From NCBI GenBank assembly GCA_017454625.1, contig JAFTCP010000022.1, positions 1 through 56,621 on the forward strand: a DNA stretch of 56,621 nucleotides, given 5' to 3'. Both the position numbers and the translations under genes were made by a program. This stretch comes from Synergistaceae bacterium (lineage in GTDB: Bacteria > Synergistota > Synergistia > Synergistales > Aminobacteriaceae). Of this stretch, positions 52,939 through 56,621 are shown in pieces. The notes below the pieces were generated by a model. That model made no database searches. It was not told where the DNA came from and saw only the letters and a list, made by a program, of their open reading frames with translations. The first letter of the stretch is position 1. Every line of letters begins with the position of its first letter.

Positions 52939-55845
52939 TTGTTCGGTCAAGCCTTGCATTATCACCTGTTCAAATACCCGCTGTATATCAATCAGGACGC
53001 TGGAGAGTGTATTAATATTTTGATTGTCGGCTTCGGAGTTTACGCGCAAAAATTTCTTGACTTATCCCTTCAGATTGGCCAAATGCACGGAAAAACTTTA
53101 AACGTCGAGATTGTCTCACAGGATGAACCCGCTGTTGAAAAATATAAACAGGACAGGCCGGAACTTGGAAACTTCTTCAGGATAAACGGACATTTTGACG
53201 GCGAAAAGGAAATCTACGGGACTATTAATTTCTCACGCACGCTGAACGAAGATTATAATTCATATTATGTTTTCGTTGATGACGCTAGTAACTTTGAGCT
53301 TGCTGAAAAATTCGCCTCCAAAAATTTCTGTTGTTTCGTCCATGAAGGGGAAAATCTCCTCCAGAATTTGCCGGATAATATTGTGCCCATCAATGTAAAT
53401 CTTGACATTACAAATCTTCCTGAGTGGCGCGAAATCTTACGAATGGCCTTTAACGTTCACCGCGTGTGGTACAAGAACTTAAACGTTGACTTCAAATCCG
53501 TGCTCAGCAGCTTCAATAACCCTTACAATCAATCCTCGTCAATCTCTAATGTCCTGTCGCTGAAATACAAACTCCATAGCGTAAGTATTGACATAGACAG
53601 CCTTGATTATGCTTCACTTGAGGCCGCCGCTGAACTCTTCACAGAGCTGAATAATCCTGAGCTATTTAATGAGTTAATGTATCTAGAACATCGAAGGTGG
53701 GTAACAGAAAAAATCTGCGAGGGCTGGACATCTTTCACAAATCTTCATGACGCTTTGACTGACGGCGCAAAAGATGACAAGCACAAACGCCACGTATGCA
53801 TATGCAGAAGTAAGCCGAGTGATAAACTTGATAAAATTTCTCATGAACAATGGGATAATATCAATGCTTCTCTTGATGAACTCGATGAACTCGAAACAAT
53901 GTCCGTAAAACTTCATCGTTTATATTTGGATGACGCGGAGAAGACCAGACAAACGGATTTATTGAACGGCCCGGAAATTTCAGGTATCCGCTCAATCTTG
54001 GATAACAACCCCGCCGCACTTTCCGCATTTAATGAGTGGTATTCATGTATACAAGCTATTTGGAACGGCGACACTCAGAAAGTTTACTTGCACGAAGGAC
54101 GACTTGATGCGCTCAAAAATTCATTTGGAAATCTCAGCAGTGCGAGAGCCTCAGAAGCATGGAAAAATTTAAACAGATTTACGGCCAAATTTACGAATAT
54201 TCTTCTTGCATATGAATACAGGAATTACAAGAAAGATGACACCGCTTTAATCGAGAAAATCCCGTTTATTCTGACCTACTCGGATGATATTTGCCTCGCT
54301 GTTCCTTATGATGACGGAGAAAGCGTTACGAGTTTACTCGGAAATTGTGCGGCTTCGGTCGTAATTAATCCCGCAAAAATAATTTATCTCTGTTTACTGG
54401 AAAGTTCAAATCAGGCCGAAAGTCTCAAAAAAACTTTTAAGCTCGTCATGAGATTTTTTAAGCGTAAGAATGTCAGGGCAGAAATAAATTTTCTCATTGG
54501 ATATTCCGAGAGAGTTAATATTTCCGGGCTTAGGCAGGAACTCAAAGGCGGGAAAATCAGGCGGGCAGAATTTATCAAGATTAGGAATGAGGATTACACG
54601 AGGCTTTGCGAGATTATACGTGAACGTTCAGAAAACTTTGTGCTTGAGAAGAATAATACGAAATTGGCCGGATTGCTTGAGAGTTATGATATTTCACGGC
54701 ATTACAGATTTGACATGCTAACGATGAACTTTAGCGAGATTAAAGGCTGTGAGATATTTACGTATATTCCCCGCCGAATTTCGATTAGTGCCGCTGATAT
54801 GCTCACGCTTTGTCAGGCTTTCAGTCTTGAGAATACGGCATCAAGTTTTTCCGGAGATTATGTAGCTTTATGGAAAAAATATACTGAGGCCAATTTTAAT
54901 GACACTTGGAAGCGTCTCTGTAAATCCCTTGAGAGTTATCCTGCCCGTATAAACTTGAAATTTGTTCCCTTATCCTACGTGAAACCTGAGGAATTAACGT
55001 ATTATCTTCCTGTGATTTGCCGACCTGCAGCTGAGAGAATAATAACATTTTTGCTAAACACCGGCTTTGCTTATTCCGGAAGCTCAATCAGCGGTCATAA
55101 CATGAACTTATGCAAGGTCGTAATAAAATCTCATCCGGAGTACGTCAGCATATATCATAAAATCTTCGCAGACCCTTACGCTCTCATGTTCTCTGACTTT
55201 GAGGCTGTCGAATGCTGGATTGATAAATCAGGCCAAGCAAACATAAAGATTAATAATTTAGTCGTGAAGGACGCGCAAATTCCCGAAACTCCACAAGCAC
55301 AAGACCTTCTGATATTTTTTGCGTCGATGGGATATATTAATAATCTCGTTATTAGCCCGCAAAATTTCACAGCAAGTTTTTCGTATTCTTCACACTCGAT
55401 CAGGGGATTAATGACTTCTGCCGGAAGAATGTTAGAGCTTTATGTTTACAATAAGGCGCAAGAGTCAGGATTATTTGATGACGCTGTAATCGGCTTCAAA
55501 GTTGGCTGGAATGAGGGCGGAGATAATGAGTTTGACTGCATAATAATCAAGGGCTTCAAGGTTCTGTGTATCGAGTGTAAGGCTCAGAAGAATATTTTTG
55601 ATGAGGAGCAAATTCTTAGTGGTTATTATGATAAACTCTATAAAATTACTGACAGGCTCGGAGTGAACGCACAGGCTGTAATGATTACGGATTTGCGGGG
55701 AATTGATAATAAACGTTTTGAGCAGAGTAACTCTAAACTTCGTGAAAGATGGAGCGATAAAGTCATCACGATTTACAAGCCGGACGAGATTGACAATATA
55801 GCCGAGACTTTGCGTAAAATTTTGGAGGGAAATTATGACGGGTAA
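52939..55845 (+). CDS. Multidomain putative defence protein: TrkA-N-like/RyR domains and Card1-like PD-(D/E)XK nuclease
   Basis: 968 residues from TTG 52939 with GAGGAGGA nine bases upstream. N-terminus: a Rossmann start INILIVGFGVYA (25-36), TrkA-N-like. Next, a RyR-repeat signature: EHRRWVTEKICEGW at 250-263, then a conserved-looking HVCICRSKPSDKL. The middle (about 340-830) is unassigned; around 440-520, KIIYLCLLES-type strands alternate with helices and could be CARF-like. C-terminus: a Card1/Can2 (DUF1887)-type nuclease, with RMLELYVY and the catalytic set Asp866, Glu879 and Lys881 (NEFD then ECK). RyR domains bind ligands in conflict systems; the nuclease may be ligand-activated. Expression with the TIR gene is likely: 11-base overlap. 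No CRISPR genes nearby. Confidence 0.75.
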   Translation: MFGQALHYHLFKYPLYINQDAGECINILIVGFGVYAQKFLDLSLQIGQMHGKTLNVEIVSQDEPAVEKYKQDRPELGNFFRINGHFDGEKEIYGTINFSRTLNEDYNSYYVFVDDASNFELAEKFASKNFCCFVHEGENLLQNLPDNIVPINVNLDITNLPEWREILRMAFNVHRVWYKNLNVDFKSVLSSFNNPYNQSSSISNVLSLKYKLHSVSIDIDSLDYASLEAAAELFTELNNPELFNELMYLEHRRWVTEKICEGWTSFTNLHDALTDGAKDDKHKRHVCICRSKPSDKLDKISHEQWDNINASLDELDELETMSVKLHRLYLDDAEKTRQTDLLNGPEISGIRSILDNNPAALSAFNEWYSCIQAIWNGDTQKVYLHEGRLDALKNSFGNLSSARASEAWKNLNRFTAKFTNILLAYEYRNYKKDDTALIEKIPFILTYSDDICLAVPYDDGESVTSLLGNCAASVVINPAKIIYLCLLESSNQAESLKKTFKLVMRFFKRKNVRAEINFLIGYSERVNISGLRQELKGGKIRRAEFIKIRNEDYTRLCEIIRERSENFVLEKNNTKLAGLLESYDISRHYRFDMLTMNFSEIKGCEIFTYIPRRISISAADMLTLCQAFSLENTASSFSGDYVALWKKYTEANFNDTWKRLCKSLESYPARINLKFVPLSYVKPEELTYYLPVICRPAAERIITFLLNTGFAYSGSSISGHNMNLCKVVIKSHPEYVSIYHKIFADPYALMFSDFEAVECWIDKSGQANIKINNLVVKDAQIPETPQAQDLLIFFASMGYINNLVISPQNFTASFSYSSHSIRGLMTSAGRMLELYVYNKAQESGLFDDAVIGFKVGWNEGGDNEFDCIIIKGFKVLCIECKAQKNIFDEEQILSGYYDKLYKITDRLGVNAQAVMITDLRGIDNKRFEQSNSKLRERWSDKVITIYKPDEIDNIAETLRKILEGNYDG

Positions 55846-56621
55846 AATATTCATCAGCCACGCTTCACAAGAACATGATTTAGCTGAACATATCGCTAAT
55901 TATCTTGAGAGCCGCAAAGAATACGACTTCAAAGCCTGGTATGCTCCCCGCGACATAAGAGCCGGTTATGACTATGACCAGGAAATTCTTAACGGGATTG
56001 AACAGTGCCGGGTGTTTGTGCTTTTATTAAGCGCTCATTCAGACGCAAGCGTACACGTAAAGAGGGAATTATACGACGCTGTCGAAAACGGAAAACGTGT
56101 AATCTGCCTTGAAGTTGAGAGAATAAATCCCCAGAATTTAAGATACCTTCTCGGCATGAAACACAGATTGAATTGGCTTGAACGTCGCGATGAAACTTTA
56201 GATGAGCTTATCCGCAATATTCTTGACGAAATAGACCAGGACAAAAATTTTTATGATGATACGGAAGACGTAAAGAGTTCTGAAATATCACAAGTTCCGG
56301 AAGTTTCACAAACTCACTATGAAGTAAAAGTTAATGTATCGGACAAAAATTTTCATGAAGTCTCTGAAATTCAAGAAACCTCACAAGCTCATGAGAAAGC
56401 AGAAGGCAACGCATCAGGAAAAATCTTTCTGAGTTACACAAATTCCAGACGTAAATCGGCCGTGAAAATTGCAGAATATCTTGAACGTTCAGGGCTTGAA
56501 ACTTGGTATCCTTCGCGTGATATTTCTGCTGGAGTAAATCATGCTGAAGCCGTAACTTCAGCGTTGAGAGAATGCCGGGCCGTTGTCCTTTTACTCTCTA
56601 AGGAAGCCGATAATAATACGA
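55835..56621 (+). CDS. Double TIR-domain protein, 3' end outside window
   Basis: 262 codons are visible from ATG 55835, with GGAGGG just upstream inside the previous gene's end. TIR domain 1 (about 3-130) opens KIFISHASQ and has WYAPRDIRAGYDY at 35-47 and RVFVLLLS at 59-66. TIR domain 2 starts near 195 (KIFLSYTNS, WYPSRDISAG, AVVLLLS). Bacterial TIR domains can degrade NAD+ or make cyclic ADP-ribose-like signals; whether these two keep the catalytic Glu cannot be settled here. The linker (about 136-194) is a tandem duplication, DKNFYDD... and DKNFHEV.... The frame is still open at the window edge. Confidence 0.88.
   Translation, partial: MTGKIFISHASQEHDLAEHIANYLESRKEYDFKAWYAPRDIRAGYDYDQEILNGIEQCRVFVLLLSAHSDASVHVKRELYDAVENGKRVICLEVERINPQNLRYLLGMKHRLNWLERRDETLDELIRNILDEIDQDKNFYDDTEDVKSSEISQVPEVSQTHYEVKVNVSDKNFHEVSEIQETSQAHEKAEGNASGKIFLSYTNSRRKSAVKIAEYLERSGLETWYPSRDISAGVNHAEAVTSALRECRAVVLLLSKEADNNT
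56240..56416 (+). repeat. In-frame tandem duplication in the TIR-TIR linker
   Basis: Unit 1 (56240-56341, 34 codons) and unit 2 (56342-56416, 25 codons) both begin GACAAAAATTTT and share Ser-Glu-Ile, Glu-(Val/Thr)-Ser-Gln and a similar His-Glu/Tyr-Glu context. The frame is kept. It parallels the duplications at other gene borders. Confidence 0.6.

What the first reader, a model, noticed from the sequence alone, without database searches (positions are those of the whole stretch)
52939..56621. Candidate TIR/RyR/Card1-like nuclease immune module
A 968-residue protein combines a TrkA-N-like Rossmann start, a RyR repeat and a C-terminal PD-(D/E)XK nuclease whose NEFD...ECK motif (Asp866, Glu879, Lys881) resembles the Card1/Can2 family. 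It overlaps by 11 bases a gene for a protein with two TIR domains. Established knowledge: TIR proteins of Thoeris make cyclic ADP-ribose-type signals that switch on an effector; Card1/Can2 are nucleases switched on by cyclic oligoadenylate through a CARF domain; the mammalian ryanodine receptor is linked to cyclic ADP-ribose. Inference: TIR proteins make a nucleotide signal that the RyR or Rossmann domain senses to unleash the nuclease. I do not know of a described system with this exact pair, and there is no CD-NTase, ThsA, cas10 or Card1-CARF gene nearby.
Basis: partly seen in the sequence, partly recalled or inferred. Interest (0 to 1): 0.92.

Follow-up and report, generated by a model that had tools for sequence, protein, structure and literature searches.

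The report
TIR-linked RyR–CARF nuclease defence module
A bacterial gene fuses a relative of the nucleotide-binding domain of animal ryanodine receptors to a complete CRISPR-type (Can2/Card1) signal-activated nuclease and sits next to an immune TIR gene; relatives in about 45 gut-bacterium genomes share the same design, which points to an undescribed anti-phage alarm system.

Summary
The 968-aa gene (52939-55845) overlaps by 11 bp a two-TIR gene that is cut by the contig end. The nuclease is real (PF09002, E 1e-8). The RyR region matches no Pfam model, but a 43-sequence profile finds RyR R12 domains as its top ten hits among all PDB sequences. The ligand residues of the 2026 RyDEP study (His, Trp, His) are invariant in 49 relatives, as is a candidate for its catalytic Asp.

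First, residues ~430-968 form a complete Can2/Card1, CARF sensor included (Foldseek to Can2-cA4 E 2e-10, TMt 0.70). Second, the window locus is a cut-down version of an operon in 48 further loci: unknown ~570-aa protein, PP2C phosphatase, kinase-Rossmann-RyR-CARF-nuclease, standalone RyR. TIR genes flank 17 of 43 such loci against 0.6 expected. Cas10 and CD-NTase are not enriched.

Best reading: an infection-triggered nuclease gated by a TIR-made ADP-ribose-type signal through RyR, with CARF as second input or dimerising switch. Ligand, activity and phage protection are inferred. No PADLOC or NCBIfam model, and no paper found here, describes the operon. New variant of a known kind; interest 0.78.

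The parts
52939..55845 (+). 968-aa Rossmann-RyR-CARF-nuclease protein (kinase-less member of the family)
52963..53388 (+). N-terminal Rossmann-like domain, residues 9-150; family consensus GxGxxG
   Evidence: G31 49/49, G33 40/49, G/S/A at 36; D62 in 34/49; profile hit in PDB only a weak dehydrogenase Rossmann
53431..53958 (+). RyR-like region, residues 165-340: a degenerate first repeat (N172, H174, W177, Y196, N197) and a second repeat (H251xxW254 x8 W263, H285-V-C287, D316)
   Evidence: profile search; hhalign; conservation; AlphaFold pLDDT 88.8; Foldseek top hits RyR but weak, E 0.76
53959..54222 (+). helical connector, residues about 341-428
   Evidence: secondary structure of model
54223..54738 (+). 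CARF-like domain, residues about 429-600 (boundaries approximate)
   Evidence: Foldseek of residues 336-968: whole-chain match to Can2 (7bdv_A E 2.1e-10, TMt 0.70), Cdn1, Can1; PADLOC CARF4 profile positions 59-338 matched in relative L007, E 3e-17
55396..55842 (+). PD-(D/E)XK nuclease, residues 820-968; motif E833, E864-x-D866, E879-C-K881
   Evidence: PF09002; PADLOC CARF-PDDEXK; conservation
55835..56621 (+). TIR gene, 262 aa present, truncated by the contig end; overlaps the nuclease gene by 11 bp
55847..56194 (+). first TIR domain, with candidate catalytic Glu78 (VKRE78)
   Evidence: PF13676 residues 5-120; residue numbering
56417..56620 (+). second TIR domain, cut before its catalytic Glu position

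Best explanation
This is an infection-triggered nuclease module. A TIR protein, activated during infection, converts NAD+ into an ADP-ribose-type signal. The Rossmann-RyR half of the 968-aa protein binds that signal with RyR residues that are invariant in the family (H251, W254, H285, D316). Binding releases the C-terminal Can2/Card1-type unit (CARF dimerisation domain plus PD-(D/E)XK nuclease), which degrades nucleic acid and stops phage growth. In the full operon a fused Ser/Thr kinase and a PP2C phosphatase set the threshold, and a separate RyR protein buffers or removes the signal. In the window the kinase, phosphatase and ~570-aa protein are absent and a TIR gene is coupled directly. Shown: domain anatomy, conservation, operon and TIR association. 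Inferred: ligand, direction of control, nuclease activity and phage defence.
For: Card1 nuclease, with D866 invariant and E864/E879/K881 at about 90%. Complete CARF+nuclease fold. RyR profile hits and alignment to the operon's own RyR proteins. Invariant residues matching the cADPR-binding residues of RyDEP H75, W78, H100 (D117 less certainly) (PMC13232231). TIR next to 17 of 43 loci, 0.56 expected, 0 of 200,000 simulations, plus 3 of 5 carriers in the window's genus. A TIR-NACHT-TPR-RyR fusion protein beside one operon. Conserved operon. Homologues of the operon RyR in 158 phage records, the class that sequesters TIR signals. Cas10 not enriched: 9 of 48 carriers against 8 of 43 genus genomes, strong hits; CD-NTase in 2 of 48.
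Against: TIR is near only about 40% of loci, and the constant partners are PP2C, the ~570-aa protein and RyR, so the TIR may be one of several sensors or just an island neighbour. The CARF domain implies a cyclic oligonucleotide could be the real ligand, and the window's genome has a Cas10. The fold match of the RyR-like region is weak (Foldseek E 0.76, TM 0.2-0.3) with no viral hit. The operon's standalone RyR has Thr in place of the phosphate-binding His in all 19 aligned. No biochemical data.
Confidence: 0.42

Rival explanations
1. The CARF domain is the main sensor, fed by cyclic oligoadenylate (Cas10) or another cyclase in trans, as in Can2/Card1. Rossmann-RyR and kinase only modulate it, for example by sensing NAD+ or ADP-ribose status.
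For: Whole-chain match to Can2 in complex with cA4; Thr at the position four before the Pro of the NP motif, lined up here with Can2 Thr42, is the commonest residue in the family (26/46; Can2 residues from PMC7969007; my alignment); Cas10 in the window's own genome.
Against: Cas10 is no more frequent in carriers than in the genus as a whole; CD-NTase in 2 of 48; the window protein has Val at that position; CARF is less conserved than RyR (mean column identity 33% against 40%).
Confidence: 0.2
2. The TIR proteins are independent members of the same defence islands or parallel effectors. The operon is controlled by the kinase, phosphatase and unknown protein alone, and the window locus is a degraded remnant with a chance TIR neighbour.
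For: More than half of loci show no TIR in the flanks; the constant order is ~570-aa protein, PP2C, kinase fusion, RyR; defence genes cluster in general (established knowledge).
Against: About 30-fold TIR excess over the density in the same genomes; translational overlap in the window (11 bp) and near-zero spacing in L041 (1 base); a TIR-like DUF4062-TPR gene overlaps the kinase-less L031 protein by 4 bp; TIR-RyR fusion in L057; the kinase was lost repeatedly (7 changes on the tree) while RyR and nuclease were kept.
Confidence: 0.22
3. The RyR domain is an off-switch: like phage RyDEP it cleaves the TIR signal, so the protein resembles ring-nuclease effectors that destroy their own activator.
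For: H251 and D316 (candidate His/Asp dyad) are both invariant, 49/49; RyDEP catalysis needs H75 and D117 (PMC13232231).
Against: Assignment of D316 to D117 is by position at the start of the last helix only; six of the eight tested RyDEP relatives bound the signals but none of the tested relatives cleaved them.
Confidence: 0.12

Closest known systems
Can2/Card1 (type III CRISPR CARF-PD-D/ExK nucleases)
   Same: CARF plus PD-(D/E)XK in one chain, catalytic ExD...ExK residues, Foldseek E 2e-10
   Different: About 430 extra N-terminal residues (Rossmann, RyR; kinase in most relatives), large insertions (545 alignment columns for a 355-aa chain), not tied to Cas10
Thoeris (TIR ThsB plus ThsA effector)
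   Same: TIR gene next to a presumed signal-activated effector with a nucleotide-binding Rossmann domain
   Different: Effector is a CARF nuclease with RyR, not SIR2-SLOG, macro-TM or protease; no ThsA; TIR matches ThsB_TIR only weakly (E 1e-5)
RyDEP / phage RyR sponges (PMC13232231)
   Same: PF02026-type domain with the same His-x2-Trp and downstream His; the operon's standalone RyR has homologues in 158 phage records
   Different: Those are viral counter-defence proteins; here the domain lies inside a bacterial nuclease and its operon
PglW / PD-T4-6 / Mokosh kinases
   Same: The kinase half of relatives matches these models best in PADLOC and NCBIfam
   Different: Only the kinase domain is shared; the window protein has none

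Membership tests
Can2/Card1 (DUF1887) | PD-(D/E)XK domain of the Card1 family with catalytic residues | tested here: met
   PF09002 above cut-off; D866 100%, E864/E879/K881 89-91%
Can2/Card1 (DUF1887) | CARF domain in the same chain | tested here: met
   whole-chain Foldseek match, TMt 0.70 to 7bdv_A; sequence-level support only in relative L007, none from the profile search in PDB
Can2/Card1 (DUF1887) | cA4-binding residues (Ser19, Thr42, Lys99, Tyr118 of Can2) and activation by cA4 | not testable with these tools
   no residue-level structural alignment available; Thr42 position is Val in the window, Thr in 26/46 relatives (my alignment)
Can2/Card1 (DUF1887) | association with type III CRISPR | tested here: not met
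   strong Cas10 hits in 9/48 carriers against 8/43 genomes of the genus
Thoeris | TIR protein with catalytic Glu | tested here: met
   TIR_2 E 4e-31, Glu78 in the expected motif (by inspection)
Thoeris | ThsA-type effector (SIR2-SLOG, TM-macro, or other described Thoeris effector) | tested here: not met
   effector is RyR-CARF-nuclease; no NCBIfam or PADLOC Thoeris effector match
RyR/R12 domain (PF02026) | Pfam RyR model match | tested here: not met
   no hit at E up to 10 for the window protein; the standalone RyR of the operon matches at E 1e-32 to 1e-30
RyR/R12 domain (PF02026) | ligand residues His-x2-Trp...His with R12 spacing | tested here: met
   H251, W254, H285 49/49; position 263 Trp in 38/49; aligned to RyR by profile; the stretch between Trp and the second His is 9 residues longer than in R12
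RyR/R12 domain (PF02026) | R12 fold | tested here: inconclusive
   RyR structures are the top Foldseek hits but E 0.76, TM 0.2-0.3

The most novel reading that the evidence does not exclude
A bacterial RyR domain is the cellular receptor for TIR-made cyclic ADP-ribose signals and, with an in-chain CARF domain, forms a two-input switch on a CRISPR-type nuclease. This would be a class of TIR immunity with phospho-control (kinase/PP2C), and the host counterpart of phage RyR sponges.
Probability: 0.3. Interest if true: 0.93.

Novelty: new variant of a known kind. Interest (0 to 1): 0.78.

Why it matters
If true, ryanodine-receptor domains act in bacteria as receptors of TIR signals. That would join three known signalling worlds (TIR/cADPR, RyR, CARF/cOA) in one protein, explain why many phages carry RyR proteins, and make the old question whether cADPR acts directly on RyR R12 domains testable in a simple bacterial nuclease assay. 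It would also be a CARF nuclease freed from CRISPR.

Tried and rejected
Pfam alone for RyR: no hit, so a family profile was built. Single-sequence scan of genome contigs: nothing; the four-member alignment gave 48 loci. No homologue of the 968-aa protein in plasmids, phages or IMG/VR. Rossmann profile in PDB: only a weak homoserine dehydrogenase; it is not CARF-like by hhalign. CARF profile in PDB: spurious Rab12 hits only. The ~570-aa operon protein: no Pfam, PADLOC, NCBIfam or PDB match. RyR model against viral structures: nothing. Linking the window's end to another contig: no overlap; C102 starts with a standalone RyR but cannot be joined. The idea that the family is a CRISPR accessory was rejected for lack of Cas10 enrichment.

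Full report
What is there. The window is a complete contig (G000:C124) and its last base cuts the second gene of the finding. The first gene, 52939-55845, encodes 968 residues from a TTG behind a good ribosome-binding site. The second starts at 55835, so they overlap by 11 bases. Upstream genes are housekeeping by inspection (ddl, secDF, yajC, enolase). ddl relatives occur in 38 of 43 genomes of the genus, the nuclease gene in 5, so this is accessory DNA. In another species of the genus a TIR gene also follows ddl directly (G034:C196).

Nuclease. Pfam Card1_endonuc matches residues 827-960 at E 1.2e-8, above the curated cut-off, and PADLOC's CARF-PDDEXK and Csx1 models agree. In 43-44 alignable relatives D866 is invariant, E864 91%, E879 and K881 89%. 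E864/D866 sit in the N-E-x-D motif, where Can2 has its catalytic Glu276/Asp278 (PMC7969007; correspondence by motif).

CARF. The AlphaFold model of residues 336-968 (pLDDT 87, 40 sequences) matches whole Can2 chains: Foldseek ranks 1-15 are Can2 or Cdn1, best 7bdv_A (Can2 with cA4) E 2.1e-10, probability 1.00, TM 0.70 by target length; Can1 is rank 16. Can2 is CARF 3-151 plus nuclease 166-366, so a TM of 0.70 cannot come from the nuclease alone. At sequence level only the relative L007 shows it (PADLOC CARF4 profile 59-338, E 3e-17); a PDB profile search of the CARF part alone found nothing real. Whether the cA4 pocket survives was not testable.

RyR. Pfam gives no RyR hit in the window protein. 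A profile of 43 relatives (residues 150-345) against all PDB sequences returns RyR R12 domains as its ten best hits, E 0.007 to 0.6. Profile-profile comparison with the operon's own bona fide RyR proteins (PF02026, E 1e-32 to 1e-30) aligns His-x2-Trp-x8-Trp and the following Lys-x-His/Thr, E 8e-5, probability 61%. E250, H251, R253, W254, E257, G262, H285, C287, W305, D316 and S322 are 49/49. In phage RyDEP, H75, W78 and H100 hold 3'cADPR, and H75/D117 cleave it (PMC13232231). H251, W254 and H285 correspond; D316 is my candidate for D117 (the residue before the last helix), not proven. A first, degenerate copy (N172, H174, W177, Y196, N197) precedes it, as in tandem R12; this is my reading of the motifs. 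The fold comparison is weak: RyR structures top the list but with E 0.76 and TM 0.2-0.3.

Rossmann. Family consensus GFGxYG, with G31 invariant, fits a dinucleotide-binding loop; no specific family could be named.

Family and operon. A four-member alignment found 48 loci in gut and rumen Lachnospiraceae, Oscillospiraceae, Ruminococcus, Selenomonadales and Synergistaceae MAGs, and a few isolates such as [Clostridium] spiroforme An567 and Fusibacter paucivorans. The usual protein is ~1390 aa: Ser/Thr kinase, Rossmann, RyR, CARF, nuclease. The usual operon is an unknown ~570-aa protein (35 hits), PP2C (30), this protein, and a RyR protein of 91-101 aa (26 RyR hits in all). Nine members, the window among them, lack the kinase, with 7 state changes on a tree of the Rossmann-RyR part (few branches well supported). 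The operon has no PADLOC or NCBIfam model, and I found no paper describing it.

TIR link. TIR genes occur in the held flanks of 20 of 49 loci. On the 43 loci outside the window's genus, one per genome, 17 have one against 0.56 expected from the TIR density of the same genomes (131 hits in 113 Mb), and no simulation reached it even at four-fold density. Caveat: observed counts used my own TIR profiles, the density Pfam's. L041 has a TIR-TPR gene starting one base after the nuclease gene, L036 three TIR genes upstream, L057 a TIR-NACHT-TPR-RyR fusion, and L031 an overlapping DUF4062-TPR gene.

Who makes the signal? Strong Cas10 hits occur in 9 of 48 carriers and 8 of 43 genomes of the genus, CD-NTases in 2 of 48. 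Many of these are incomplete MAGs, so absences are soft. The window's own genome has a Cas10 on another contig, so a cOA input is possible there. Of the signal makers tested, only TIR proteins are enriched.

Mechanism. I favour TIR signal to RyR, then CARF-nuclease, with kinase/phosphatase tuning and a RyR buffer. The steps from signal to effect are inferred. Phage records with homologues of the operon RyR (158) fit an arms race over the same ligand.

Verdict. Observation confirmed; interpretation partly right and worth testing; the system is a new variant built from known parts.

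Noticed in passing
L036:5726-7288, L035:5449-7140 and about 30 other loci: A conserved ~570-aa protein of unknown family opens the operon; no match in Pfam, PADLOC, NCBIfam or PDB.
   Followed up: partly
L057:1822-5262: 1146-aa TIR-NACHT-TPR-RyR fusion protein beside the operon.
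   Followed up: yes
G000:C102:88-369 (L065): The only PF02026 RyR gene of the host genome lies at the very edge of another contig, followed by aconitase; it may be the missing continuation of the window locus.
   Followed up: partly
G034:C196:2845-3042: A TIR gene follows ddl in another species of the genus, the same site as in the window.
   Followed up: no
A4 (19 standalone RyR proteins): The phosphate-binding His of RyDEP and animal RyR is Thr in all 19 operon RyR proteins (KxTPLLVPY), while HxxW and the YDR Asp are kept.
   Followed up: no
158 phage records: Phages of Salmonella, Pseudomonas, Arthrobacter, Erwinia and others encode homologues of the operon's RyR protein, one annotated under 'minor head protein'.
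   Followed up: no
L016, L021, L027, L057: Operons next to genes that look like VirD4-type coupling and ClpP-like genes of a conjugative element.
   Followed up: no
L042:7879-12071: The fused protein is split in two overlapping ORFs (845 and 565 aa), a frameshift or assembly error.
   Followed up: no
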